Source: Desulfonatronospira sp. (GTDB lineage: Bacteria > Desulfobacterota > Desulfovibrionia > Desulfovibrionales > Desulfonatronovibrionaceae). From it: 10,301 nt of DNA. The notes under the pieces are model-generated. The model made no database searches and had not been told where the DNA came from. It worked only from the letters and a program-made list of their open reading frames with translations. The stretch is taken from assembly GCA_003554505.1 (NCBI GenBank), contig PWGS01000008.1, positions 1 through 10,301 on the forward strand, given 5' to 3'. The position numbers and the translations under genes are program-made. Shown here one piece after another: positions 1 to 10,301 of the stretch; position 1 is the stretch's first letter; the number at the start of each line of letters is the position of its first letter.

Positions 1-163
1 CATTCCCATGCAGGGCATGGTCCAAAGCCTGAATGTATCCGTGGCGGCGGCTGTTATTCTTTACGAGGCCTTCAGGCAAAGGCACCAGGCCGGACTCCTG
101 GAAGAAAGGGCCCTGCCCGGGGACAGACAGGATGAATTATACCATGAGTGGATTCAGAAATAA
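1..163 (+). CDS. trmH: TrmH-like tRNA (guanosine-2'-O)-methyltransferase, C-terminal fragment
   Basis: The gene enters from the left edge; in-frame codons begin at base 2 and end at a TAA at 161-163, leaving 53 visible residues. They open with [17 protein letters not shown], which matches the C-terminal signature of SPOUT-class TrmH/SpoU methyltransferases (family form [15 protein letters not shown]), the part of the knot that binds S-adenosylmethionine. It is followed by ILYEAFRQR, the usual helix. Known members methylate the 2'-OH of a tRNA guanosine, typically G18. The tail after this motif is short and charged and ends soon after the helix, as in many short TrmH proteins. The last 32 bases overlap the start of the shikimate kinase gene, suggesting co-transcription. 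The N-terminus is outside the window, so the substrate class (tRNA or rRNA) cannot be fixed. Confidence 0.85.
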
Positions 164-698
164 AAAGGGAAATATTTATCTTATCGGACCCAGGGCCAGC
201 GGCAAGACCACACTGGCTGAGGATATTGCCGGCAGGACAGGACTTAAGGCCGTGGACGCGGATAAGGCCCTGCAGGAGGAACAGGGGCAAAGCATTCAGG
301 AGATAGTCTCGGGCCAGGGCTGGGAGTATTTCAGGGACCTGGAGAGCAAGTTCCTGCAGCGCACGGCCGGGTCCGGGCCCATGGTAGTAGCCACCGGCGG
401 CGGGGTGGTGCTGGGAAGTGCCAACAGGGAACTGCTTAAAGATTTTCGGCATTTGACGGTGTATCTGCAGGCAGACCCTGATCTCATCTGTTCCAGACTT
501 GCAGAGGATCCCAAACCGGGACAGAGACCGGCGCTTTCGGATCTGGATTTCAGGGAAGAGATACGCGCTACACTGGAAAAACGCCAGAAACTTTACATGG
601 AGTGCGCGGATATTGTCCTTGCTGCGGACCAGCCCCTGGAACTGCTGGCTGAAGAAGTTTACCGGGTCTATGTGGACAAAAAGCAGGAAGGGCAGTGA
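132..698 (+). CDS. aroK: Shikimate kinase
   Basis: Phosphorylates shikimate at the 3-OH with ATP in the cytoplasmic chorismate (aromatic amino acid) pathway. From the ATG at 132 the protein is 188 residues, close to the usual 170-190. Visible motifs are the Walker A loop GPRASGKT (19-26), the shikimate-binding DAD (42-44, Asp42 and Asp44), FRDLE (67-71, with Arg68 and Glu71), the GGG substrate loop (89-91), a lid with GQRPAL (130-135) and RQKLY (151-155) near the adenine site. All key residues look intact. The frame stays open upstream to an ATG at 33, but that extension has no family resemblance and lies inside trmH. ATG 132 has GGGGA nine bases upstream; ATG 144 is a possible alternative. 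The overlap with trmH points to translational coupling. Whether aroK or aroL is the better symbol is arbitrary here. Confidence 0.93.
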
Positions 699-744
699 AA
701 GGCGGGATTTTCCCGGATACAGCAGAGCCTGCAGGGTCCGGCTG

Positions 745-1041
745 TTATCTGCGTTCTCTCTTCAAGGACTCTATAGCCTTGTTCAGACACCATTTTCTGG
801 ATTTTTCAGGATTCCTGGACTGCTCCAGCTCAACAAGCCTGCGGGCCACATCTTCGCGTCCATGTACCAGGCCGAGAAGTCTTTTTGCTAGTTCCTGCTC
901 TTTTTTCGAGCTTTTTTTACCTGTCTGCAGTCCAGGAAAAAACATTTCATGCATGCGTGCGGAGCGCCTGACCTTGATGCCCAGCAGTGCAAGTGCAATA
1001 CCTAGAAGAATGGCCAGAGAGGCAATGGTCCAGAGGGTCAT
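745..1041 (-). CDS. Small single-pass membrane protein, unknown function
   Basis: A 98-residue protein on the minus strand, convergent with shikimate kinase (46 bases between the stops). Residues 2-23 form one hydrophobic segment (LWTIASLAILLGIALALLGI) followed by KVRRS, a typical N-terminal anchor with a positive cytoplasmic flank. The rest is hydrophilic, rich in Lys, Arg, Glu and Leu, and probably helical (for example KKEQELAKRLLGLVHGRED and a C-terminal KAIESLKRERR). I recognise no family. The Shine-Dalgarno sequence is weak, a GAG about six bases before the ATG. Reality is supported by the sensible membrane topology and the amphipathic composition, whereas the overlapping plus-strand reading is Ser/Cys/Arg-rich and looks random. 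A small anchored regulator or scaffold is conceivable, but nothing shows it. Confidence 0.65.
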   Translation of the reverse strand: MTLWTIASLAILLGIALALLGIKVRRSARMHEMFFPGLQTGKKSSKKEQELAKRLLGLVHGREDVARRLVELEQSRNPEKSRKWCLNKAIESLKRERR

Positions 1042-1161
1042 AATGGCTCAGCAGATGGCATATCCATCATTTTCGCATCTTCTGATGTCTGTTCATGGGT
1101 TTTCCCGAAGGCATTGGCAGATGTTGTTCATTGTTGCCTTAACAGGCTGGCTATCAGTGAC

Positions 1162-1190
1162 AATATACTGTAAAAAACTGTCGGGCACAA
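1162..1190 (-). promoter_or_regulatory. Candidate promoter for the small membrane protein
   Basis: Read on the minus strand, TTGTGC (1190-1185) is separated by exactly 17 bases from TATATT (1167-1162). The -10 box is good but the -35 box matches only TTG. It would give a leader of about 115 bases before the ATG at 1041. This is consensus matching by eye only. Confidence 0.22.
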
Positions 1191-1455
1191 CTCAAAATCA
1201 TGCTGCAGGGCTCCCTACAGGCAAGAGAAAATGTCCAGGACAAGACGTCTCTCATGGATTCAAGTGCGGTCCTGTGCCAGAGTGAAGAAAAAGCAGTCCG
1301 ACAGACAAGCAAACAACCCGGGGCTGTGTCATTGATCCGGCGGCAAAGTTCTCAAAAAAATCACATCTGAATTCTGCACCTGCAAGCTTCCAGCCGGGAT
1401 GCATTTTCCCGGATGAAATCCAGATATTCGGCCAGTACTGACCTGATCGCAATAA

Positions 1456-1467
1456 TCAATACATTGA
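1456..1467. promoter_or_regulatory. 12-bp inverted repeat, possible operator
   Basis: TCAAT-AC-ATTGA is a perfect 5+5 inverted repeat in the AT-rich patch upstream of the degenerate KS gene. Its right arm overlaps a TTGACA (1464-1469). A direct repeat of AATAATCA (1451-1458 and 1502-1509) brackets the patch. The placement suits a repressor or activator site, but a match of this length can arise by chance in AT-rich DNA. Confidence 0.2.
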
Positions 1468-1498
1468 CAAGTTCACTATGTTTGTGCCAGATTATACT

Positions 1499-1504
1499 TA
1501 TAAT
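1499..1504 (+). promoter_or_regulatory. Candidate -10 box upstream of the degenerate KS gene
   Basis: A consensus TATAAT lies about 139 bases before the ATG at 1643, with an overlapping TATACT at 1493-1498. The clear TTGACA at 1464-1469 is too far away (23-29 bases) to be a standard -35 partner, so this would need an activator or a weak -35. Start mapping would decide. Confidence 0.25.
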
Positions 1505-1642
1505 AATCATCAATGGTTATTTGCAAAGTCAGACGGCATTGCAATAGCTGAAGATGCCGGCTAAACATTCATGTGGCAGCAGGGGCATACAATATTTTTT
1601 GCCTGAGCAGCCTGCACAACGTATACTTATCCAGCAGAAGAA

Positions 1643-2779
1643 ATGACCTGTTATTCAAAGCAAACCTATCAGGCAGATGCAGGCTCTTCAGGAGCGGCAT
1701 TTTTGCCTGTCTATATCCGGGGTATAGGAGTTCTGGGCAGCTTCGGCACAGGCGTGCATGATCTGAGGAAGGCTCTGGAGGAAGACAGGGCGGCAGAAAC
1801 TTCTTTTACCAGCCATGACCTGGACAATGCACAGAAAGACCTGCCTGTCGCGACCGCGGATACAGGTGCTTTGGGCAGATATCTGCCCAGGAAAGTGTTG
1901 CGTCGTATTGACCATTATTCACGCATGGCTGTGCTCGGGTCGTTTCTGGCCCTGGAAGACGCAGGCATGCTGGATAACCCCCGGGAAAGAATGGGTATTG
2001 TAATTGCCACGAGCTACGGTGCCGCGGCAACCACTTTTTCCTTTCTGGATTCTGTGATCAATGACGGCGATGCCTGCGCCTCTCCTACATATTTTTCCAA
2101 TTCTGTGCACAATGCAGCTGCTGCACACATTTCGATTCTCCTGAACATCACCGGGCCGAGTCTCACTGTCAGCCAGTTTGAACTGTCTGTTTCTTCGGGG
2201 TTGATTACAGCCAGGCAGTGGCTGCTGGAAAACAGGGTTGATTATGTTCTTTTTGGAGCAGTTGATGAGTACTGTGCATTGCGCGGTTATAGCTGGCTGA
2301 GGCTTTGCGTTCCTGGCAGCAAAGATATTTCGGGCAATCTCGCTGGGGATGATCAAGGGAGTGTTATGGGCGAGGGTGCTGCTTTTTTTCTCTTGTCTTC
2401 TGAAAAAACAGTCGATGATTATGGCTGCATCACCGATATCCAGCAGGGCAGATGGCATGAATGCAGCTTATCATTTTCTGGACCAGCACCCCTGATTCTT
2501 AACAGCGGTTCAGAACTTGCTTGCAAAAGCAACGCCGATCTGATTCCCGGACAAAGCTCACAGGGAGCAGCGCATGCACATATTTTCGGCGGACTGCCCG
2601 CAAGCCAGGCCTTTGACCTCGCTGTTGCCGGGCTGAAAATACAACAGGGGCAACTGTTTCCATGCTCTGAGGAGCCAGGTACATCCATCGCAGAAAACTG
2701 TATGCAGCAGGATCCCGGGATAGTCTGCTTGCAAATCGGGAAAGGGGGTGATTTTGGCGCAGTCACACTGGTCGATTGA
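1643..2779 (+). CDS. Degenerate beta-ketoacyl synthase, chain-length-factor-like
   Basis: A 378-residue protein with a thiolase-fold KS layout. The N-terminal strand VYIRGIGVLGSFGTG (23-37), SVHNAAAAH (154-162), GPSLTVSQFELSVSSGL (171-187), GAVDEY (205-210) and GEGAA (243-247) are recognisable, with a C-terminal FGGLPASQAFDLA segment (315-327). The nucleophile loop has no cysteine: S-Q-F-E stands where active KSs have A-C-S/A. Both catalytic histidines, normally in HGT/AHAT and KS-x-x-GH, are also missing, and that stretch is shortened. This pattern is known for chain-length factors and other KS-like partners that dimerise with an active KS, as in type II PKS and aryl polyene clusters. It probably pairs with one of the KSs encoded downstream (inference). 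The ATG at 1643 has only a poor purine-rich ribosome site (agaagaa). The last 32 bases overlap the next gene. It could instead be a stand-alone KS-like protein with another role. Confidence 0.85.
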   Translation: MTCYSKQTYQADAGSSGAAFLPVYIRGIGVLGSFGTGVHDLRKALEEDRAAETSFTSHDLDNAQKDLPVATADTGALGRYLPRKVLRRIDHYSRMAVLGSFLALEDAGMLDNPRERMGIVIATSYGAAATTFSFLDSVINDGDACASPTYFSNSVHNAAAAHISILLNITGPSLTVSQFELSVSSGLITARQWLLENRVDYVLFGAVDEYCALRGYSWLRLCVPGSKDISGNLAGDDQGSVMGEGAAFFLLSSEKTVDDYGCITDIQQGRWHECSLSFSGPAPLILNSGSELACKSNADLIPGQSSQGAAHAHIFGGLPASQAFDLAVAGLKIQQGQLFPCSEEPGTSIAENCMQQDPGIVCLQIGKGGDFGAVTLVD

Positions 2780-3374
2780 CAGATTGCGTGATGCATGGCT
2801 TTATGTACCGCTTTTGTGTCTTTTTGCTGTGTTCAGCATGATTGTTGCCCCCGGGCTGGCTAATGCTGAAGAACAGGAACGCAGTGAGGTTGTAGAGCCA
2901 CGTTACGGAATGGGGCTTGGGGTAGCACTTGCCTATGATCCATCAGATGCCAGAGACTTCGCCACTGTTACCGGGTTTGCTCTTTATGATTATGATGCCA
3001 TCTGGCCCCACAGAGCCCCTGAGTCCCTGCGTTTCAAGGTGGAGGGCAGCCTGGGAGGAACCCTGCGTTCTCCTCCAGAGATTCTGGCTTCAGTCGGATT
3101 TTTGGCCCTGTACTATCTTGACGGTTTGAGCAGCAGGTTTGTTCGTCCTTATATTGAAGGTGGTGTAGGGCTTATCTATACAGAATACAAGGTCAAAGAG
3201 CAGGGCACGCGATTGAATTTCAATCCTCAGGCAGGAGTTGGGATTGAGTTTGCCGGGGACCACAACCTGCAGCCCTGGATGTCCGTTCGCTTACATCACC
3301 TTTCCAATGCAGGGTTGAGCAGTGATAACCGAGGGGTTAATTCCCTTGTCATTAATATGGGATGGTTTTTTTAA
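2748..3374 (+). CDS. PagL/acyloxyacyl-hydrolase-like outer-membrane protein
   Basis: A 208-residue protein with an N-terminal signal peptide (hydrophobic core about 18-36, likely cleavage after ANA at 40) and alternating beta-barrel strands ending in GWFF, with the C-terminal aromatic typical of outer-membrane barrels. The segment RLHHLSNAGL (181-190) matches the PagL family (lipid A 3-O-deacylase) catalytic His-x-Ser-Asn motif, with His184 and Ser186. The family's third catalytic residue, Glu, lies 12 residues after the Ser in Pseudomonas PagL; here that position is Asn198 in RGVNSL. So it may be inactive, use another residue, or act on a different acyl substrate. The GTG start at 2748 has GGGA six bases upstream and overlaps the KS stop; a TTG at 2784 would give a more compact signal peptide. 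Placement inside a fatty-acid cluster suggests a role in moving or trimming acyl groups at the outer membrane (inference). Confidence 0.75.
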   Translation: MILAQSHWSIDRLRDAWLYVPLLCLFAVFSMIVAPGLANAEEQERSEVVEPRYGMGLGVALAYDPSDARDFATVTGFALYDYDAIWPHRAPESLRFKVEGSLGGTLRSPPEILASVGFLALYYLDGLSSRFVRPYIEGGVGLIYTEYKVKEQGTRLNFNPQAGVGIEFAGDHNLQPWMSVRLHHLSNAGLSSDNRGVNSLVINMGWFF

Positions 3375-3415
3375 GCACTGTTTTTTTGTCTAAACTAAAT
3401 AACAGGAGTAAAGTT

Positions 3416-4045
3416 ATGACCAGGAACATCCTTTCTTCTAAATCTTTTTCTCTGGCCAAGTTGTTGCTCTATCTTTGTCTGCCTTTTATTCTTGCCACCC
3501 TGGCTCTGGGCTGCCGCGGAGCAAGCAGTAACCTGCATGCAATATATGCAGATGAACCGGAGGTATATACCAAGTATAATATCCATGCCCAGGACAGCGG
3601 GCGTGATATTAAAGCCAGCTATGCCGGATTTGTTGATCCGGGAGATGGGCATATCATCATTCCAGCTGGATCCGAAATAGAATTTCCTGATAGGCGCGCC
3701 AGAAGAAACGGGTTTTATTTCAAGGTAATGGATACAGGCCAGATGGTGTTTTTTGAATATCACAGTGGACGCATGGAAATGAGTGAAGAACAATATGTGG
3801 AACTGATCACCTCGGATGAGCCGGTTTCTATTGAGGGTTTTTCCGAGATTGATCAGAAAGGCATTGAAGCCGGCAAGGCTTTGGAAGGCATGAGCAAAGA
3901 CGGAGTACTCACTGCACTGGGTTACCCTGCAAAACATAGAACACCTTCTCTGGAGAGTTCGAGCTGGACCTATTGGCGCAACAGATTTGTTACAAGTGTA
4001 GTTGAGTTTAATGCTGAAGGATATGTAGAGAATGTAAGACAGTAG
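3416..4045 (+). CDS. Lipoprotein with a SmpA/BamE-like C-terminal segment
   Basis: Starts at the ATG at 3416, which has a strong AGGAGT ribosome site at 3404-3409; an in-frame GTG at 3362 lies too close to the previous stop and lacks a ribosome site. The 209-residue protein has a hydrophobic signal segment (about 15-31) and a lipobox LALGC with the acylated Cys at 33. It is followed by a mixed, mostly hydrophilic domain. The C-terminus (about 153-208) reads G-K-A-L-E-G-M-S-K-D-G-V-L-T-A-L-G-Y-P and ends with a tryptophan/tyrosine patch and a VVEF strand. This resembles the SmpA/BamE fold (helix G-x-s-x-x-x-V-x-x-x-l-G-x-P, then beta strands), often found in small outer-membrane lipoproteins. 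The +2 residue is Arg, so inner-membrane retention is not predicted by the Asp+2 rule. The function is unknown; an envelope helper of the neighbouring barrel or lipid system is plausible. Confidence 0.8.
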   Translation: MTRNILSSKSFSLAKLLLYLCLPFILATLALGCRGASSNLHAIYADEPEVYTKYNIHAQDSGRDIKASYAGFVDPGDGHIIIPAGSEIEFPDRRARRNGFYFKVMDTGQMVFFEYHSGRMEMSEEQYVELITSDEPVSIEGFSEIDQKGIEAGKALEGMSKDGVLTALGYPAKHRTPSLESSSWTYWRNRFVTSVVEFNAEGYVENVRQ

Positions 4046-4204
4046 TTATAGTATATGCTGCTGTGTTTGTGAACCGTATATCAGTTTAAAGCAACAGCGG
4101 AAATCAGGCAACAACAAAGTCTAGCTCAAAAATAAGCAAGCTTTTTTAGGCTTGTCAGATATATTTGTTGCTGCCTGCTCTGCTCCAATCATCAAGGGAT
4201 TGCC

Positions 4205-4945
4205 ATGCATGCACAAAACAAACCGCGTACTGCCCTGGTTACAGGCGGCAGCAGGGGGATAGGAGCGGCTACAGCAATAATGCTGGCCCGGGACGGATTC
4301 GATATATGGCTGAACTACAGAAGCAATCATCAAAAAGCGTCTGTAGTCAAGGATTCGATTGAAATCCTGGGGCGAAAATGCCAGCTGCTGCCTTTTGATG
4401 TGGCGGACCCGGAAGCTGCCTTTTTAGCTCTGGAGCCTGTTTTGGAAAAGGAAACTCCTTTTGCCGTGATCAACAACGCCGGGTATGCAGCTGACAAGTT
4501 GATGCTGACTATGGATTATCATGATGACTGGAGAAAAGTTTTGGATGTCCATCTGGACGGATTTTTCCTGGTGACAAAGCTGGCCTTGGAAAAAATGCTC
4601 CGCAAGCGCAGTGGACGCATAGTCAACATTGTTTCTACCGCAGGTCAATCTGGAATGCCCGGCCAGACTAACTATGCAGCAGCCAAATCAGGGCTGATTG
4701 GGGCTACAAAGTCTTTAGCTCAAGAGATGGGAAAACGAAATATCCTGGTGAATGCAGTAGCCCCAGGATTTATTGAAACCGACATGACTACAGATCTGCC
4801 CTGGAAAGAGATGCTGCCGCGAGTGCCGCTGAACAGGATCGGGCAGCCGGAGGAAGTTGCAGGCGCAGTATCCTTTCTTTGTTCGGACAAAGCTTCATAT
4901 ATCACAGGGCAAGTTATTGCTGTCAATGGAGGCATTTATATGTGA
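4205..4945 (+). CDS. fabG: 3-oxoacyl-ACP reductase, FabG-type SDR
   Basis: NADPH-dependent reduction of 3-oxoacyl-ACP to 3-hydroxyacyl-ACP in type II fatty acid or polyene synthesis. The 246 residues match the usual FabG length. It has the classical SDR cofactor motif TGGSRGIG (13-20), NNAG (90-93), catalytic Ser144, Tyr157 and Lys161 (YAAAK), and the NAVAPGFIETDM loop (183-194). NYRS (37-40) after the second strand agrees with NADPH preference. The usual tetrad Asn of the helix-4 segment (VNL in most FabGs) is His116 here (VHLDGFF). The ATG at 4205 has AAGGGA at 4194-4199, five bases upstream. This is probably a pathway-dedicated reductase, because it sits among KS and envelope genes and not beside fabD, fabF or acpP. 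Substrate chain length cannot be told from the sequence. Confidence 0.92.
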   Translation: MHAQNKPRTALVTGGSRGIGAATAIMLARDGFDIWLNYRSNHQKASVVKDSIEILGRKCQLLPFDVADPEAAFLALEPVLEKETPFAVINNAGYAADKLMLTMDYHDDWRKVLDVHLDGFFLVTKLALEKMLRKRSGRIVNIVSTAGQSGMPGQTNYAAAKSGLIGATKSLAQEMGKRNILVNAVAPGFIETDMTTDLPWKEMLPRVPLNRIGQPEEVAGAVSFLCSDKASYITGQVIAVNGGIYM

Positions 4946-4981: not shown

Positions 4982-5623
4982 ATGAAAACCTTAATTCGTA
5001 TGGTATCGATTGTAATTTTATCGACAGTCTTATTAGGGTGTGCATTTGGAAATAAACATAGTTACCATGATGCTATTGCAAACATTAATATTGAGAATAC
5101 TATAGCAGTTGCTGTAACTGCCCACGATCAAAGAGCATATATAGTCTCTGGTAATAAAGACCCCGATTTTGTTGGACTGCAGCGAGGCGGATATGGTAAT
5201 CCTTTTGATGTAAAGACTGAAAGCGGTAATTCCCTTGCCGATGATATGTCAAAGTCATTAGCGAATTCTCTTGTAGAGAGAGGTTTCGAGGTCCAATATA
5301 TATCTGTTTCATCCAACATGGATAAAGACTCTGTTATTGATAAGTTAAAGGAAAAAGGATCAGACAGATTGTTAGTTATGACAATAAATGAGTGGAAAAG
5401 TGATACATATAACAATACCGCGCTTATATATGATATGAAAGTTTCGATATTGGATGGCGCAGGAATGCAACTAGCAAGTAACAGTATTAAAGGGAGAGAT
5501 AATTTAGGTGGAAGTTTCATTAATCCTGCTGGGCATGCTAAACAAGTCATTCCTAAAGCATTCACAGATAAAATTGAACTTCTTATTAATGATAAAGAGA
5601 TACGTAATGTTCTTCAATATTGA
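4982..5623 (+). CDS. AT-rich lipoprotein of unknown function
   Basis: A 213-residue protein with a short lipoprotein signal: a basic start (MKTLIR), a hydrophobic stretch (about 7-18) and the lipobox LLGC with acylated Cys20; the next residue is Ala, which suits outer-membrane sorting. Ribosome site AGGAG (4970-4974) lies seven bases before the ATG. Residues 40-75 hold an AVAVTAHDQR strand and a GLQRGGYGNPFDV loop. Later stretches alternate strands and helices, which recalls small alpha/beta lipoproteins such as YajG, but I cannot assign it to that family with confidence. The coding sequence is noticeably AT-rich (many ATA, AAT and TTA codons) compared with the GC-richer fabG and KS genes around it, which suggests separate acquisition. 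It may be a passenger and not a part of the pathway. Confidence 0.78.
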   Translation: MKTLIRMVSIVILSTVLLGCAFGNKHSYHDAIANINIENTIAVAVTAHDQRAYIVSGNKDPDFVGLQRGGYGNPFDVKTESGNSLADDMSKSLANSLVERGFEVQYISVSSNMDKDSVIDKLKEKGSDRLLVMTINEWKSDTYNNTALIYDMKVSILDGAGMQLASNSIKGRDNLGGSFINPAGHAKQVIPKAFTDKIELLINDKEIRNVLQY

Positions 5624-6046
5624 GTGATAAGTAGTGGCTTTTTTTCAAAATAAAAAATAATATTATAGCTTAGAATTAAATAATAATAGTTTACCATTCT
5701 ATCGATATGTACTCTGATGGTTCAGTTTTCCGGCAAACAGGTCTTAAATATTTGCTTTTATACCATAGAGTGACAGATAGATCAAAACCTTTACTCTGTT
5801 TTATAACATTTCATACTATTTAACACTTGCTTTGAATCAATTTCGGTGCATATCACATTAATGGCGTGATTTATTAATCAATCTTCAGGTGTGACTATGT
5901 CGTTAAGGCATTTTACTTTGATTTTCTTAACCCCATGACACTAGATCTTCGTCCGCGGGTTTCGATTGTCCAGCTCTCAGGTGGTAAACAGTTACTTTTT
6001 GAAAAAAACTGTTTCTCTATATAATAATAAAATATACAGGTTTTTT
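5624..6046. other. AT-rich intergenic region before the KS operon
   Basis: About 420 bases without a convincing gene. The base composition continues the AT-richness of the preceding lipoprotein. It holds AGAGT...ACTCT arms (5767-5771 and 5793-5797) too far apart for a clear terminator, an open frame of only 13 codons at 5897, and a promoter-like sequence at its right end. No RNA gene, insertion-sequence end or CRISPR is visible. This length is unusual between same-strand genes here and probably separates two transcription units. Confidence 0.6.
5999..6025 (+). promoter_or_regulatory. Candidate promoter of the KS-FAD-KS-ACP operon
   Basis: A TTGAAA (5999-6004) and a consensus TATAAT (6020-6025) lie just before the first KS. 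The 15-base spacer is short; TTTTTG at 5996-6001 would give 18. Transcription would begin near 6032, leaving about 15 bases with an AGG (6038-6040) six bases before the ATG at 6047. The compact layout supports it, but an AT-rich background makes chance boxes common. Confidence 0.4.
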
Positions 6047-7270
6047 ATGATGCATAGGGTCGTTGTAACCGGCGTGGGAATTATTTCCTGCCTGGGCAAT
6101 GATATAGATTCCGTAACCACAGCTCTTTACAAGGGGCAGTCCGGGATTGAAGTTGATCCGCAAAGACAGGAAATGGGTTTTATCAGCCCATTGACTGGAG
6201 TGATTCGAGGTTTTGAGCCTACCAGATACCTGGGCCGCAAGCAGCGTAAAACCATGCCCGATTTTGCTGTCCAGGCGCATGCCGCTGTCATGGACGCCCT
6301 GGAAATGGCTGGAATCGATCCTGAGCAGCTGCGCGATGAAGAGACCGGACTGATTTTCGGATGTGATTCCAGCTGCCAGGCAGCAGTGGAGCAGGTGGAC
6401 TATCTCCGCAGGCTCAGGGATACCCGTTCTCTGGGTAGCGGGCTGATTTTCAGGTCCATGACCTCCACCATCACCATGAACCTGAATACTTTGCTGGGTG
6501 CCCGGGGAGCTTGCTGGTCAATCAGTTCGGCCTGCTCCAGCGGCGGCCATGCCGTGGGCCAGGCAGCAGATCTGATCGCCCTGGGACGTCAGAAGAGAGT
6601 GATCTGCGGAGGCGCCCAGGAAATCAACTGGGAGTCCATGTGCAGCTTTGACGGCCTCGGCGCCTTTTCCGGCAGAACTGATGAGCCCGGGGGGGCAAGC
6701 CGACCGTTTGATGCTGGACGTGACGGCCTTGTGCCCAGCGGCGGAGCAGCTGCGATTATTCTGGAGCGTTATGACCTGGCCCGTAAACGAGGCGCCCTGA
6801 TCCTGGGAGAGGTCATGGGGTATGGTTTTTCCTCGGACGGGCAGCATATTTCATCCCCCAGTTCCGACGGTCTTGAACGGGCCATGCGTTCCGGCCTGCA
6901 TCAGGGGGGGCTGAAGCCTTCGGATATCGATTATATCTGTGCCCACGCAACCTCAACCCCCTCTGGAGATTCGGCAGAAGCCGGGAGCATCACAGCTATT
7001 TTCGGGGAACACACCCCGGCTGTTTCATCTTTGAAATCCATGACCGGCCATGAACTGTGGATGTCGGGCGCTGCCCAGGTTGTATACTGCATATTGATGG
7101 CCAGGAACGGATTTGTTGCCCCGAACATCAACTTTGAAGAGCCGGACGAGACCTCGGCCAAACTGGATATAGTAACAGAGTCCAGGCACGCCGAGCTTCG
7201 AAGTGTACTCTGCAACTCCGCCGGGTTCGGGGGCACCAATGCCTGCATTACCCTTGGTTTCGGAACATGA
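6047..7270 (+). CDS. Beta-ketoacyl-ACP synthase, FabB/KAS I-like
   Basis: Catalyses decarboxylative Claisen condensation of an acyl-enzyme with malonyl-ACP. The protein is 407 residues, normal for the family, and starts with VVVTGVGIISCLG. The catalytic set is intact: Cys163 in SSACSSGGH, His300 in AHATSTPSGD, and Lys330 and His335 in LKSMTGHELW. The last motif (TGHELWMSGA) is more like KAS I (FabB) and the KSs of bacterial polyene clusters than housekeeping FabF. The C-terminal GFGGTNA (394-400) is also intact. I chose the ATG at 6047 (or the adjacent ATG at 6050), with AGG six bases upstream; the frame stays open to 5966, but that extension is AT-rich and unlike the family. The stop overlaps the next start by four bases (ATGA). 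It probably forms homodimers or pairs with the degenerate KS at 1643 (inference). Confidence 0.93.
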   Translation: MMHRVVVTGVGIISCLGNDIDSVTTALYKGQSGIEVDPQRQEMGFISPLTGVIRGFEPTRYLGRKQRKTMPDFAVQAHAAVMDALEMAGIDPEQLRDEETGLIFGCDSSCQAAVEQVDYLRRLRDTRSLGSGLIFRSMTSTITMNLNTLLGARGACWSISSACSSGGHAVGQAADLIALGRQKRVICGGAQEINWESMCSFDGLGAFSGRTDEPGGASRPFDAGRDGLVPSGGAAAIILERYDLARKRGALILGEVMGYGFSSDGQHISSPSSDGLERAMRSGLHQGGLKPSDIDYICAHATSTPSGDSAEAGSITAIFGEHTPAVSSLKSMTGHELWMSGAAQVVYCILMARNGFVAPNINFEEPDETSAKLDIVTESRHAELRSVLCNSAGFGGTNACITLGFGT

Positions 7271-8751
7271 AATACGACTATGTAGTAATCGGATCAGGCA
7301 TTTCCGGCCTGGTTTCGGGAATAATCCTGAGTAAACAGGGGCTAAGTGTAGCTGTTCTGGAAAAGGCTGCCCAGCCTGCTCCCCTGCTGAGAGGGTTTAA
7401 GCGCCGGGGGATACATATTGATACGGGTTTTCATTATACTGGTGCCTTTGCACATGGCGAAGCCCTTGACAGTTATTTCCGCTATTTGAACATTGCCGAG
7501 GATCTGGAAAAAATCCCCTATGACAGTGAGTGCTTCGATTCGTTTTACTTCACAGACGATGATTACAGTTTTTCCTTCCCCTTCGGGTACGAGCGTCTCC
7601 GGGACCGTTTGTGCTCCGCCTTCCCCCATGAGAAGAAGGGGATTGATTCCTACCTGCACACGGTCAGCGAGGAGTTCAACAGGTCTCCGCATTTGAACCT
7701 GGACATCTCCTCGAACAATATATTCATGTACGACCCATACTCCAGCCAAAGCCTCAATTCATTCTTGCAGGGTCTTATCAGTAATCCCAGACTGCGCTCC
7801 ATTCTCTCCATGCATTACCTTCTGTACGGGACAGAGCCGGGCAGGTCTTCCGTGTCTGTTCATGCCCAGGTTGCGGGGTCCCTGTACAGTTCAGTACACG
7901 GGATCAAAGGGGGGGGGCGCACCCTGGCAAAGACGCTGCTGCAGCGTCTCAGGAATCTGGATGCCGACATTTTCAGCAGGAGTAATGTGGCCAAGGTCAT
8001 GGTCAGGGCAGGCGAATTTCAAGGTGTTGAACTCGCAAACGGGGAAACTGTTCAAGCAAAAGGGTGCATTTCCAGCATTCACCCCAGGGCATTATTGCCC
8101 CTGGTGGAAGAGACAGCTTTCCGTCCCGCAACCAGGCAACGCTTTCAGGCTTTTGAGGACACTACCTCGGCGTTCATGTTTTCTGCGGAGCTGGAGCAGC
8201 TGCCTGAGATGCTCAGCAGAAAAAATCTCTTTCTTTGTCCTGACGATGATCTGGATACCTATTGTCACCTGGAGCGTGCCATCGAAAAAAGGCCTTTTTT
8301 CTTTGCCTCTGCCGGCCTGGAGAATGAAAAGTCGCGACCGGGCATGATCATGCTTTGTCCGGCGTCAATGCAGGAGATGTACCCCTGGCGGGACAGCCTG
8401 CCCGAGCATCGACCGGAGTCGTATCTAGAAATGAAGCAGGCGCTGATGCAAAGAGTCCATGATCATGTCCTGCGCAAGGTTCCTGCGATCCATTCCTTAA
8501 CCATGCTGGATTGCGCAACTCCGCTCACGTTCAGGGATTACGCCAATGCGCCTTCAGGATGTCTCTACGGGATCAAACAGAAATACGGTCAATTAAACCC
8601 CACTCCCCTGAGCAAGATCAGAGGGCTGTATTTAACAGGTCAGGCCCTGACGGCGCCGGGTATTCTGGGGGGAACCATCTCAGCTTTTCTGACCTGCGGT
8701 GTCATTCTTGGCCAACAGAAACTTATCCAAGAGGTCCGGAAATGTCGCTGA
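7267..8751 (+). CDS. FAD-dependent oxidoreductase, RetSat/CrtI (phytoene desaturase-related) type
   Basis: A 494-residue flavoprotein. It begins with an FAD-binding Rossmann motif, VVIGSGISGL (GxGxxG at 9-14), and Glu32 at the end of the second strand (VLEK), which would bind the ribose. DTGFHYTG (52-59) resembles the D-x-G-x-H-Y-x-G motif of retinol saturases and carotene isomerases, and a KGGGRTLA stretch follows near residue 215. The C-terminal FAD motif is LYLTGQALTAPGILGG (455-470). The family (COG1233) includes phytoene desaturases, carotene isomerases and all-trans-retinol 13,14-reductase; members act on conjugated polyenes or lipid chains. The neighbours are KSs and an ACP rather than carotenoid genes, so the substrate is more likely an acyl or polyene chain made here (inference). 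Translationally coupled on both sides (4-base and 10-base overlaps). Contains a nine-G tract. Confidence 0.9.
   Translation: MKYDYVVIGSGISGLVSGIILSKQGLSVAVLEKAAQPAPLLRGFKRRGIHIDTGFHYTGAFAHGEALDSYFRYLNIAEDLEKIPYDSECFDSFYFTDDDYSFSFPFGYERLRDRLCSAFPHEKKGIDSYLHTVSEEFNRSPHLNLDISSNNIFMYDPYSSQSLNSFLQGLISNPRLRSILSMHYLLYGTEPGRSSVSVHAQVAGSLYSSVHGIKGGGRTLAKTLLQRLRNLDADIFSRSNVAKVMVRAGEFQGVELANGETVQAKGCISSIHPRALLPLVEETAFRPATRQRFQAFEDTTSAFMFSAELEQLPEMLSRKNLFLCPDDDLDTYCHLERAIEKRPFFFASAGLENEKSRPGMIMLCPASMQEMYPWRDSLPEHRPESYLEMKQALMQRVHDHVLRKVPAIHSLTMLDCATPLTFRDYANAPSGCLYGIKQKYGQLNPTPLSKIRGLYLTGQALTAPGILGGTISAFLTCGVILGQQKLIQEVRKCR
7909..7917 (+). repeat. Nine-G homopolymer inside the FAD oxidoreductase gene
   Basis: Nine consecutive G bases encode the KGGGR segment. 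Slippage by one base would cut the protein after about 217 of 494 residues. Shorter seven-G runs occur in the preceding KS gene at 6689-6695 and 6904-6910. Such tracts drive phase variation in some bacteria, but codon choice for glycine can also produce them. Confidence 0.6.
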
Positions 8752-9971
8752 ACCGAGTCGTGGTAACCGGGATGGGCGCTGTTTCTCCTTATGGGATGGG
8801 CGCCGACATCTTATATTCTTCGTTAAAAAAGGGTGCCAGCGCCATCAGGCAGGTGCCTGACCTGGAAACGGTCAAGGGTTTGCGGTGTCATATCGCCGGG
8901 GTGGTTCCGGACCTGGACGAAAAACAGATTCCCCGGAAGTTCAGAAGGTCCATGTCCAGGATGTCTGTTTATTCCACTCTGGCCGCCATGGAAGCCCTGG
9001 AAATGGCAGATGTCCGGGAAGAGCAGCGCCGTTCGGAACAGACTGGAGTCATTATCGGCACAACAGTAAGCAGCCCTCAGACTCTACAGGATTTTTTCTC
9101 CGATTATTTACAAGACTTCTCTGTTGAACGGGTCAAGTCATCTCTTTTCTTTAAAATCATGGGCCACAGCTGTGCCGCCAATGTCGCACAGTCCCTGGGC
9201 ATCACCGGCCGAATCCTGGCTCCCTCTGCAGCCTGTGCCACAGGAGTGCAGGCAATCGGCCTGGCCTTTGAGGCAATTGCACTGGGACGTCAGGATATTG
9301 TGCTCTGCGGCGGGGCTGAAGAACTGCATCCGTTGACAGTGGCCATTTTTGATATTATCAATGCAGCATCGACACAGTTCAATACCGTCCCTGACAGTTC
9401 TCCACGCCCCTTTGACGAAAGACGTGACGGAATAGTATGCTCCGAGGGATGTGGAATCCTCGTTCTGGAATCCCTTGATTCAGCTTTGAGCCGCGGGGCC
9501 TCGATACTGGCGGAAATTGTCGGGTTTGCTTCCAATACAGATACTTCGAACATCTCCACTCCCGACTCCGCCCGGATAGAGCAATGCATGCGCATGGCTC
9601 TGGCCAGTGCAGGAGTTGGTTCTGATGAAGTAGATTATGTCAATGCGCACGCCACGGCGACAACACTGGGAGACTCGGCCGAATGCAGAGCCATAGAACA
9701 TATATTCGGAGCAGATATTCCGGTAAGCAGTTTCAAGGGGCACTTCGGGCATTCGCTGGCTGCCAGCGGTTCCCTGGAAATGATCGGCATGCTCAATATG
9801 TTGCAGGAGGAGGTCTGCCTGCCGACTCTGAACCTGAACATTCCCAGTGAAGACTGTGCCATGGTCCGCCACGTACAAACGCTTGAGTCATGTGCCGTGA
9901 AAACGGCGCTCAAAAATAACTTTGCCCTGGGCGGAGTCAACACATCTCTGGTTGTAAGGAAATACGTATGA
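8742..9971 (+). CDS. Beta-ketoacyl-ACP synthase, FabF/KAS II-like
   Basis: Elongating ketosynthase of 409 residues, starting with RVVVTGMGAVSPYG. Catalytic residues are Cys165 in SAACATG, His303 in NAHATATTLGD, and Lys332 and His337 in FKGHFGHSLAASG; the glycine-rich C-terminal loop is FALGGVNTSL (394-403). The set is complete, so it should be active. The ATG at 8742 has GAGG seven bases upstream and overlaps the previous stop by ten bases; a longer frame back to 8511 lies within the FAD gene and is not family-like. The sequence is well diverged from the KS at 6047, so this is not a recent tandem copy. Two active KSs in one operon suggest division of labour, such as priming versus elongation, or different chain lengths (inference). 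It overlaps the ACP gene by four bases. Confidence 0.94.
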   Translation: MSLNRVVVTGMGAVSPYGMGADILYSSLKKGASAIRQVPDLETVKGLRCHIAGVVPDLDEKQIPRKFRRSMSRMSVYSTLAAMEALEMADVREEQRRSEQTGVIIGTTVSSPQTLQDFFSDYLQDFSVERVKSSLFFKIMGHSCAANVAQSLGITGRILAPSAACATGVQAIGLAFEAIALGRQDIVLCGGAEELHPLTVAIFDIINAASTQFNTVPDSSPRPFDERRDGIVCSEGCGILVLESLDSALSRGASILAEIVGFASNTDTSNISTPDSARIEQCMRMALASAGVGSDEVDYVNAHATATTLGDSAECRAIEHIFGADIPVSSFKGHFGHSLAASGSLEMIGMLNMLQEEVCLPTLNLNIPSEDCAMVRHVQTLESCAVKTALKNNFALGGVNTSLVVRKYV

Positions 9972-10222
9972 CGCAGCAGCAAATCATTGAAACCGTAAAC
10001 AGAGCTCTGAGCGAGGAGTTTGAGCTTGAACCGGCGGACATGAGTCCGGAAGCACATCTATACAACGACCTTGGGCTGGACAGCCTGGATGCCGTGGACA
10101 TGGTTATAGTGCTGGAAAATGCCTTTGGTTGTAAACTCAGGGATGAAAAAGCCATCCAGAACATACGGACAATGGGTGACCTATACGCATTTATCGAAGA
10201 GAAGAAAAAGGAACTGGAATGA
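9968..10222 (+). CDS. Acyl carrier protein
   Basis: An 84-residue, acidic, helical ACP that carries the growing acyl chain on a 4'-phosphopantetheine arm. The attachment serine is Ser39 in LGLDSLDAVDM (35-45), which matches the D-S-L motif. An acidic helix II (VDMVIVLENAF) follows, the usual docking surface for KS and other enzymes. The length is normal. The basic/acidic C-terminus (EEKKKELE) is slightly longer than in FabACP. The ATG overlaps the KS stop by four bases (ATGA), and the same arrangement joins it to the next gene. It is almost certainly a dedicated carrier for this operon and not the housekeeping acpP, which normally sits with fabG and fabF. It needs a phosphopantetheinyl transferase from elsewhere. 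Confidence 0.95.
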   Translation: MTQQQIIETVNRALSEEFELEPADMSPEAHLYNDLGLDSLDAVDMVIVLENAFGCKLRDEKAIQNIRTMGDLYAFIEEKKKELE

Positions 10223-10301
10223 CTGACCCTGTCAGGCCTTCCGGAACCGGCCCCTCCAGGACCGTGTTGCGAAGCAGCCGCAGCCGATTGAGCATACAGG
10301 C
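10219..10301 (+). CDS. Start of the next operon gene, truncated by the window edge
   Basis: An ATG at 10219 overlaps the ACP stop (ATGA), exactly like the previous junctions, and the frame stays open for 27 codons to the window end. The visible residues begin MTDPVRPSGTGPSRT and are Ser/Arg/Pro-rich, probably a disordered N-terminus. No family can be recognised. By analogy with related clusters it could be a dehydratase, acyltransferase, ligase or another carrier protein, but nothing in the visible sequence chooses between these. Confidence 0.55.
   Translation, partial: MTDPVRPSGTGPSRTVLRSSRSRLSIQ

What the first reader, a model, noticed from the sequence alone, without database searches (positions are those of the whole stretch)
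6047..10301. Dedicated type II acyl-chain operon pairing two ketosynthases with a RetSat/CrtI-like FAD enzyme
Seen: KS, FAD oxidoreductase, KS, ACP and a further gene, all coupled by 4-10 base overlaps. Known: aryl polyene clusters combine KSs, ACPs and FabG, and 'ladderane-like' clusters of anammox bacteria and some sulfate reducers combine FabF-type KSs and an ACP with phytoene-desaturase-like enzymes. Inferred: this operon makes an unusual, probably unsaturated or polyene-derived fatty chain that the flavoenzyme desaturates, saturates or isomerises. No carotenoid genes are present to explain the flavoenzyme otherwise.
Basis: partly seen in the sequence, partly recalled or inferred. Interest (0 to 1): 0.75.

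Follow-up and report, generated by a model that had tools for sequence, protein, structure and literature searches.

The report
Probable polyene-lipid gene cluster, product unknown
The window holds about a third of a 26.5-kb bacterial gene cluster that looks like a machine for building an unusual polyene-type outer-membrane lipid, a relative of both the aryl-polyene/flexirubin pigment pathways and the still unsolved 'ladderane-like' lipid clusters; this kind of cluster has been described before, but what it makes is not known.

Summary
Five genes (FabB-like KS, CrtI/RetSat-like flavoenzyme, ApeR-like KS, ACP, acyltransferase cut by the contig end) run on + and overlap by 4 bases each. They sit inside a 26.5-kb cluster: upstream in the window a half-size KS, PagL-like, lipoproteins and FabG; downstream, on two other contigs of the assembly and contiguously in genome G006, a FlxY-like ligase, one SPASM and three B12 radical-SAM proteins, two hotdog dehydratases, LolA/MMPL/DUF3261, thioesterase, two more full KSs, a second half-KS, glycosyltransferase, acyltransferase and second ACP. 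Of 27 cluster proteins, 20 have a match in a Persicobacter flexirubin-type cluster, the flavoenzyme included; the radical-SAM genes do not. One of those is the 'ladderane' marker TIGR04072 (662 bits, cut-off 360). KS-FAD-KS recurs across the phylum. Phytoene/squalene synthase was found in 1 of 12, ammonia-lyase and UbiC in 0 of 12 genomes tested. Best reading: a flexirubin/aryl-polyene-type type II polyene synthase whose chain is modified by the flavoenzyme and radical-SAM enzymes and exported. Similar clusters were published in 2009: a new member of a known, unsolved kind.

The parts
132..698 (+). Shikimate-kinase-like gene (AroL-like); neighbour, probably not part of the cluster
   Evidence: PF01202 126 bits; AroL model 153 vs cut-off 161
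1643..2779 (+). CLF1: half-size ketosynthase, active-site Cys replaced by Glu, no C-terminal KS domain; chain-length-factor-like (start codon unsure)
   Evidence: PF00109 65 bits, no PF02801 (scanned from 1706); E/S/A/gap at the four catalytic columns; matches in G011 and G015
2748..3374 (+). PagL-like lipid A 3-O-deacylase (start codon unsure)
   Evidence: PF09411 72 bits (scanned from 2790); 64% in G011
3362..4045 (+). putative lipoprotein (start codon unsure)
   Evidence: no Pfam match (scanned from 3416); 55% in G011, 49% in L019; lipoprotein by eye
4205..4945 (+). FabG-type ketoreductase (ApeQ/FlxB-like)
   Evidence: FlxB model 297 bits, cut-off 340; FabG model NF004200 274.6 vs 273; also PF13561; 71% in G011
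4982..5623 (+). putative lipoprotein
   Evidence: no family above cut-off; 57% in G011; lipoprotein by eye
6047..7270 (+). KS_A: FabB-like ketosynthase, Cys-His-Lys-His intact
   Evidence: 52% to a Persicobacter cluster KS
7267..8751 (+). CrtI/RetSat-like FAD oxidoreductase
8748..9971 (+). KS_B: ApeR-like ketosynthase, Cys-His-Lys-His intact
   Evidence: best solved matches 4EWG (289 bits) and 7F27 (283), next 231; joins ApeR 100/99
9968..10222 (+). ACP1, PRK05350 family, DSL motif present
   Evidence: NF003757 77 bits, cut-off 65; motif
10219..10301 (+). start of lysophospholipid (1-acyl-G3P) acyltransferase, cut by the contig end; complete in G006
   Evidence: PF01553 73 bits for the G006 copy

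Best explanation
The window carries part of a 26.5-kb cluster for a flexirubin/aryl-polyene-type (type II, ACP-bound) polyene lipid, extended by the radical-SAM genes typical of 'ladderane-like' clusters. Proposed working: the FlxY-like ligase activates a starter acid; KS_A, KS_B and the KS/half-KS pairs extend it with malonyl units; FabG and the two hotdog dehydratases turn each keto group into a double bond; no separate enoyl reductase was recognised among the cluster proteins, so the double bonds would stay. The FAD enzyme, translationally coupled to the two KSs it lies between, then changes the oxidation level or geometry of that polyene (saturase, isomerase or further desaturase), and the SPASM and B12 radical-SAM enzymes make C-C or C-methyl changes. 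Thioesterase, acyltransferases and glycosyltransferase anchor the chain in a lipid that LolA/MMPL/DUF3261 carry to the outer membrane. Shown: gene content, order, conservation, intact or lost catalytic residues of the KSs. Inferred: substrate, order of reactions, product.
For: Cluster content. 20 of 27 cluster proteins match the Persicobacter flexirubin-type cluster, e.g. KS_A 52%, ACP2 52%, FabG 51%, FlxY 40%, GT2 36%, FAD 29%. Counterparts by family, not by alignment, of E. coli ape C-F and H-R, 15 of 18 letters (table passage of PMC8253772). KS_B-ApeR clade 100/99. Two half-size KSs without the Cys; ApeC is half-size in PMC8358021. FAD beside KS/ACP/FabG genes in 23 of 27 phylum loci; the 24 FADs from such loci form one clade (100/99) apart from the one CrtI row. 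TIGR04072 662 bits; FAD found in 11 of 14 genomes with TIGR04072 over 480 bits against 17 of the other 233, Fisher p 1.5e-9.
Against: No aromatic ammonia-lyase and no UbiC in 12 of 12 genomes, so the usual aryl starters are unexplained. FlxB, FlxY, LolA2, LolB2, ApeI- and ApeP-like matches are below their curated cut-offs. KS_C and KS_E did not group with ApeO in the tree, and FlxY, GT2, DH2, LolB and the half-KS KS_D found no match in the Pseudoalteromonas aryl-polyene cluster at E<=1e-3. The FabG-type protein also hits PF13561, a family named for enoyl reductase. The 480-bit line was drawn after seeing the scores, the own genome is among the 14, and related genomes are not independent. No product measured; no anammox sequence compared.
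Confidence: 0.62

Rival explanations
1. A plain aryl-polyene/flexirubin-type pigment: an aromatic acid from an undetected source is the starter, and the radical-SAM genes only decorate it.
For: 20 of 27 proteins shared with the Persicobacter cluster, which has an ammonia-lyase; FlxY-like ligase 468 bits against a cut-off of 520, and C. pinensis FlxY is reported to be a CoA ligase specific for 4-coumarate (PMC3992019, passages).
Against: No PF00221 lyase and no UbiC in 12 of 12 genomes tested (other routes not tested); four radical-SAM genes have no counterpart in the Persicobacter or Pseudoalteromonas clusters nor in the E. coli gene table passage.
Confidence: 0.2
2. The cluster makes polyunsaturated fatty acids or long polyunsaturated hydrocarbons, as proposed for the related Desulfotalea psychrophila cluster.
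For: Rattray 2009 found C31:8/C31:9 hydrocarbons in D. psychrophila, which has a cluster syntenic with Kuenenia's (PMC2649909).
Against: Export, glycosyltransferase and ligase genes are not needed for hydrocarbons (inference); the 2009 link is by correlation only.
Confidence: 0.1
3. The radical-SAM enzymes cyclise the polyene, giving ladderane or another polycyclic chain outside anammox bacteria.
For: TIGR04072 'ladder' radical-SAM 662 bits vs 360; same kinds of genes as Kuenenia kuste3335-3352 and kuste3603-3608 (Table 2 of PMC4790861).
Against: No ladderanes found in D. psychrophila (PMC2649909); no methyltransferase family among the cluster proteins scanned, unlike kuste3338/3347; TIGR04072 is common in the phylum (84 of 247 genomes at E<=1e-80, 54 over cut-off); the anammox genes gave no ladderane in E. 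coli, though many proteins were insoluble there (PMC4790861).
Confidence: 0.06
4. Carotenoid-type pathway: the FAD enzyme is a true phytoene/carotenoid desaturase or isomerase.
For: By sequence the best solved relatives are 4REP (carotenoid desaturase) and 4DGK (CrtI); by fold 4REP ranks first and 4DGK fifth; the best NCBIfam models are carotenoid ones.
Against: All of these far below cut-off (CrtD 94.5 vs 550, isomerase 77 vs 587, CrtI 58 vs 238); phytoene/squalene synthase in 1 of 12 genomes; neighbours are KS/ACP; tree; anammox relatives failed to make lycopene (PMC4790861).
Confidence: 0.02

Closest known systems
'Ladderane-like' FASII + radical-SAM + phytoene-dehydrogenase-like clusters (Kuenenia stuttgartiensis, Desulfotalea psychrophila, Geobacter, Pelobacter; Rattray 2009)
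   Same: By gene kind: several KSs including forms with lost catalytic residues, ACPs, FabG, FabZ-like, phytoene-dehydrogenase-like FAD enzyme, radical-SAM enzymes, phenylacetyl-CoA-ligase-like enzyme, glycosyltransferase, large membrane protein; TIGR04072 member
   Different: One 26.5-kb locus here, several loci in Kuenenia; no methyltransferase found; sequence identity to the anammox or Desulfotalea proteins not measured
Flexirubin-type cluster on Persicobacter psychrovividus plasmid pPP6 (L072)
   Same: 20 of 27 cluster proteins have a match there, including FAD (29%), KS_A (52%), FlxY (40%), GT2 (36%)
   Different: It has an ammonia-lyase and C45 peptidase; no match there for the four radical-SAM proteins, PagL and the two lipoproteins; its best match for KS_B is the KS_A-type KS (32%); the curated flx models are not reached here
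Aryl polyene clusters (E. coli ape from literature; Pseudoalteromonas plasmid L071)
   Same: ApeR-like KS_B (39%), KR, ACPs, thioesterase, acyltransferase, LolA, MMPL; half-size KS as ApeC
   Different: KS_A, second KS/half-KS pair and radical-SAM genes added. L071 has a FAD enzyme too, but of another type (geranylgeranyl-reductase/halogenase-like; only 36 residues align with the window's)
RetSat / CrtI / CRTISO flavoenzymes
   Same: Fold and FAD-binding part; sources name homologues 'all-trans-retinol 13,14-reductase'
   Different: Below every curated carotenoid cut-off; own clade with FADs of such clusters. RetSat itself was not compared

Membership tests
Ladderane-like cluster | TIGR04072 rSAM_ladder_B12 member over its cut-off | tested here: met
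   661.9 vs 360 bits, L022:5344-6708:-
Ladderane-like cluster | FAS genes with several KSs, some lacking the catalytic Cys, plus phytoene-dehydrogenase-like FAD enzyme and radical-SAM enzymes | tested here: met
Ladderane-like cluster | SAM methyltransferase (kuste3338/3347 type) | tested here: not met
   no methyltransferase family among the cluster proteins scanned with Pfam; whether this gene defines the kind is not settled
Ladderane-like cluster | Orthology to anammox proteins by sequence | not tested
   no hit listed bears an anammox name; most hits bear none and lists are capped at 120
Ladderane-like cluster | Ladderane lipid made | not testable with these tools
   needs lipid analysis
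Aryl polyene cluster | ApeR-like KS | tested here: met
   KS_B
Aryl polyene cluster | Half-size CLF (ApeC-like) lacking the second thiolase domain and Cys | tested here: met
   two copies, window 1643-2779 and L022:8027-8773:-; kinship to ApeC by size and domain, not by tree
Aryl polyene cluster | ApeO-like KS partner | tested here: inconclusive
   KS_E best matches ApeO in L071 (36%) but the tree leaves KS_E and ApeO unresolved and puts KS_C elsewhere
Aryl polyene cluster | ApeI/ApeP dehydratase models over cut-off | tested here: not met
   ApeP-like 20.6 vs 27, ApeI-like 23.9 vs 28.5
Aryl polyene cluster | LolA, MMPL, DUF3261 transport genes | tested here: met
   73.8, 31.0, 43.6 bits, all over cut-off
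Aryl polyene cluster | Source of aryl starter (ammonia-lyase or UbiC) | tested here: not met
   0 of 12 genomes each; other routes not tested
Flexirubin cluster | flx models over cut-off | tested here: not met
   FlxY 468/520, FlxB 297/340, LolA2 90/125, LolB2 20/60
Flexirubin cluster | DarA/DarB dialkylresorcinol genes | not tested
   not searched
Carotenoid pathway | CrtI/CrtD/isomerase model over cut-off; phytoene synthase present | tested here: not met
   (synthase in 1 of 12 genomes, not in G000 or G006)
Housekeeping FabF/FabB | KS_B, KS_C, KS_E group with host FabF or E. coli FabF/FabB | tested here: not met
   host FabF with E. coli FabF 99/97, without them
Housekeeping FabF/FabB | KS_A groups with FabB | tested here: inconclusive
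   sister to E. coli FabB (97/92), the only FabB in the tree, but in its own clade (100/100) with a Persicobacter cluster KS; the host has no other FabB-like gene among its 7 PF00109 matches

The most novel reading that the evidence does not exclude
The 'ladderane-like' clusters are flexirubin/aryl-polyene synthases by descent: an ApeR/FabB-like and KS-half-KS engine makes a polyene on ACP, and the KS-coupled flavoenzyme plus B12 radical-SAM enzymes fold or cyclise it into a new strained or polycyclic acyl lipid in culturable sulfate reducers, giving a tractable model for the unsolved ladderane pathway.
Probability: 0.06. Interest if true: 0.9.

Novelty: new member of a known kind. Interest (0 to 1): 0.45.

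Why it matters
How ladderanes, and the many 'ladderane' clusters outside anammox bacteria, work is open. This locus shows such a cluster sharing 20 of 27 proteins with a flexirubin-type pigment cluster, with the flavoenzyme kept between two ketosynthases in loci across the phylum. Named homologues of its FAD enzyme are 60% identical in Desulfonatronum sp. SC1, D. zhilinae and D. thiodismutans (that these are cultured strains is recalled), so the product could be sought in pure cultures instead of anammox enrichments. No paper linking the two kinds turned up in the searches (8 papers listed, seen as a listing only; one, passages of its reference list; none in 24 and 83).

Tried and rejected
Carotenoid reading: rejected by model cut-offs, no phytoene/squalene synthase in 11 of 12 genomes, and the tree. 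Housekeeping FAS: rejected for KS_B, KS_C, KS_E; KS_A stays near FabB. Flexirubin membership: four flx models below cut-off. Plasmid carriage of this cluster: in 72,556 plasmid records only 3 hold a FAD relative at E<=1e-20, 25-27% identical; the Tistrella one lies in an unrelated neighbourhood. Direct anammox comparison: no listed hit bears an anammox name, and no anammox genome was reached. The Photobacterium locus L077 was fetched but its record has no annotation there and it was not used. A first script for active-site columns used a wrong motif and gave meaningless Cys and Lys columns; redone.

Rows dropped: the FAD tree left out L046, L049, L050, L054, L056 and L060 of the 27 loci (fragments, an internal stop, or not picked); it has one annotated carotenoid enzyme, on a long branch, two more outside rows from Rhizobium, and warnings on long branches and composition. 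Neighbours were named by the best match among 31 proteins of the G006 locus, so low-identity 'KS_A' or 'KS_B' there means a KS of some kind. One search scored only 7996 candidates.

The odds of the novel case went from 0.1 to 0.06 because it cannot be likelier than rival 3, which it contains.


Full report
Observation. The finding's four complete genes and the start of a fifth are where it says, on the + strand, each overlapping the next by 4 bases: KS_A 6047-7270, FAD 7267-8751, KS_B 8748-9971, ACP1 9968-10222, next ORF from 10219. Families.

Extent. Genome G006 of the same genus (5 contigs, 97% complete) holds the window at 99.74% identity over its full length, with the rest of the locus in one piece. 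After ACP1 come: lysophospholipid acyltransferase, FlxY-like ligase, SPASM radical-SAM, hotdog DH1, LolA, MMPL transporter, DUF3261/LolB-like, hotdog DH2, thioesterase, KS_C, half-KS (KS_D), three B12 radical-SAM proteins, glycosyltransferase, LpxL-like acyltransferase, ACP2, KS_E; then genes that look like TolC, a membrane-fusion protein and an RND pump (by eye). The own assembly has the same genes on contigs C306 (L023, 99.5% to G006) and C304 (L022, 99.97%). CLF1 (1643-2779), PagL-like, two lipoproteins and FabG upstream in the window are counted in because G011 has them in the same order. The cluster spans about 26.5 kb (positions 11435-37968 of the reverse complement of the fetched G006 stretch) with 27 proteins.

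Catalytic state. KS_A, KS_B, KS_C and KS_E keep Cys-His-Lys-His. CLF1 has Glu at the Cys (Glu in G011, Asp in G015); KS_D has Ser (Asn, Lys, Lys in G011, G015, L018) and no second domain. ApeC of aryl-polyene systems is likewise a half-size KS (PMC8358021, abstract and passages). The four radical-SAM proteins keep one CxxxCxxC motif each and both ACPs a DSL motif (meaning of the motifs recalled).

Placement of the KSs. KS_B's best solved relatives are 4EWG (289 bits) and 7F27 (283), the next 231; the paper deposits 7F27 as Acinetobacter ApeR and argues that 4EWG is a Paraburkholderia ApeR. In a tree of 23 full KSs, KS_B and three relatives join a Pseudoalteromonas ApeR (100/99); KS_A and three relatives join a Persicobacter KS (100/100) with E. 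coli FabB next (97/92); the host FabF joins E. coli FabF (99/97); KS_C and three relatives join another Persicobacter KS (100/98, long branch); KS_E and two relatives form a clade (100/100) whose tie to ApeO is unresolved. So the window pairs a flexirubin-type FabB-like KS with an aryl-polyene-type ApeR around the flavoenzyme.

The flavoenzyme. The NCBIfam carotenoid models it hits are far below cut-off. An AlphaFold2 model (40 sequences, pLDDT 92.8, pTM 0.92) matches a carotenoid desaturase (4REP, TM 0.74) best, then an unnamed oxidoreductase, amine oxidases and phytoene desaturases: a CrtI-type fold without a substrate clue. On plasmids the best two relatives are in Persicobacter (216 bits) and Aureispira (167). 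The Persicobacter one lies in a run with ammonia-lyase, KSs, CLF, LolA, FabG and AMP-ligase; the Aureispira one has MMPL-acyltransferase, C45 peptidase and AMP-ligase beside it as in Persicobacter, but no annotated KS in the 13.4 kb seen. An annotated crtI reaches only 59 bits. In a tree of 30 FAD proteins the 24 from such loci (Persicobacter and Aureispira included) form one clade (100/99), without CrtI, two Rhizobium rows and three phylum hits that have no KS neighbours; 14 of them, 13 with both KS_A and KS_B beside them and one (L045) with FabG and KS_B, form a subclade (99/96).

Comparison with two annotated clusters. Of the 27 cluster proteins, 20 match a protein of the Persicobacter cluster at E<=1e-3; the seven without are PagL, the two lipoproteins and the four radical-SAM proteins. 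Against a Pseudoalteromonas aryl-polyene cluster 14 match, not counting a 36-residue FAD-motif match: that cluster has a flavoenzyme of another type. Several proteins share one best partner, so these are homologies, not one-to-one orthologies.

Distribution. In 247 genomes drawn from the phylum (own included), TIGR04072 at E<=1e-80 is in 84 (54 over cut-off) and the FAD at E<=1e-40 in 28; 20 have both (expected about 9.5; Fisher p 2e-5). Of the 14 with TIGR04072 over 480 bits, a line drawn after seeing the scores, 11 have the FAD (p 1.5e-9). In 8 of the 20 the two genes are on one contig less than 13 kb apart, in 12 on different contigs. In 8 of 28 FAD genomes TIGR04072 was not found at that level, among them two (G126, G207) with the KS_A-FAD-KS_B triad. 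2152 TIGR04072-like proteins at E<=1e-60 were found, named ones from Desulfonatronovibrio, Desulfocurvibacter, Pseudodesulfovibrio and Desulfuromonas. KS_A relatives number in the thousands (7986 of 8000 candidates at E<=1e-60), so KS_A alone is no marker.

Starter and pathway tests. Twelve genomes were searched: five in which most of the cluster was read (G000, G006, G011, G015, and G264 holding L018) and seven in which only the FAD with a KS neighbour was seen (G218, G225, G233, G112, G257, G212, G249). Aromatic ammonia-lyase 0 of 12, UbiC 0 of 12, phytoene/squalene synthase 1 of 12 (G112). The same searches ring in 5, 1 and 7 of 14 control genomes. Ten of the twelve are at least 90% complete; G000 is not. 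Chorismatase-type and other routes to an aryl starter were not tested.

Mechanism. E. coli ape genes C-F and H-R (15 of 18; table seen as a passage of PMC8253772) have counterparts here by family, the ligase in FlxY style and ApeJ as two genes; the E. coli proteins themselves were not aligned. Aryl-polyene KSs, KR and dehydratases make polyenes on ACP, and LolA/RND/DUF3261 genes are proposed to carry the lipid to the outer membrane (PMC8358021, PMC8253772, passages). I infer the same here, with the flavoenzyme and radical-SAM enzymes as chain modifiers. In an anaerobe a reductase or redox-neutral isomerase is as plausible as a desaturase; nothing here decides.

Known or new. Rattray et al. 2009 (PMC2649909; abstract, first parts of Results and Discussion, passages) described such clusters in Kuenenia and Desulfotalea and mention Geobacter and Pelobacter. 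Javidpour 2016 (PMC4790861; abstract, Results and Discussion, passages with Table 2) tested the Kuenenia genes without success and found that the two phytoene-desaturase-like enzymes do not make lycopene. A 2023 survey (PMC9902471, passages) reports 'ladderane' clusters from nine groups including Desulfobacterota. So the kind is known and its product is not. Added here: the full gene list in this lineage, the test of the FAD-KS linkage, the search for the usual starters, and the overlap with a flexirubin-type cluster.

Caveat on the host. Contig C112 of the own assembly overlaps the first 217 bases of the window at 94.5% and is 91% identical to G006, while the window is 99.74% identical to G006; other own contigs (C103, C30) are mostly 86-92% to G006, one stretch 78%. 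The same place thus seems present twice in the bin. Contigs C290, C304 and C306 probably come from a G006-like strain binned into G000, or from a recent transfer. The cluster itself is in one piece in G006.

Noticed in passing
window 1-217 vs L073 (G000:C112) 3886-4102: The first 217 bases of the window occur a second time in the same assembly at 94.5% identity, while the window is 99.74% identical to another genome (G006): likely binning of a second strain, or recent transfer.
   Followed up: partly
window 2748-3374: A PagL-like lipid A 3-O-deacylase sits inside the cluster and is kept in G011 (64%), which may point to outer-membrane lipid remodelling linked to the product.
   Followed up: no
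L072 9004-31549 (Persicobacter psychrovividus plasmid pPP6): A whole flexirubin-type cluster with ammonia-lyase, KSs, a FAD enzyme related to the window's and a C45-family peptidase lies on a plasmid; Aureispira pAUEa carries a similar MMPL-FAD-C45-AMP-ligase run.
   Followed up: partly
L055 (G056:C2) 50-4304: A compact version: a KS, the FAD enzyme and a B12 radical-SAM gene directly adjacent, overlapping by 4 bases each.
   Followed up: no
window 5624-6046: A 423-base gap precedes KS_A, so the KS_A-FAD-KS_B-ACP unit may have its own promoter.
   Followed up: no
L030 positions 5984-6250 (G006) and many G000 contigs: A stretch of about 260 bases matches some 35 contigs of the own genome (76-98% identical; 40 of 105 candidates scored), probably a dispersed repeat or mobile element that breaks the assembly.
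   Followed up: no
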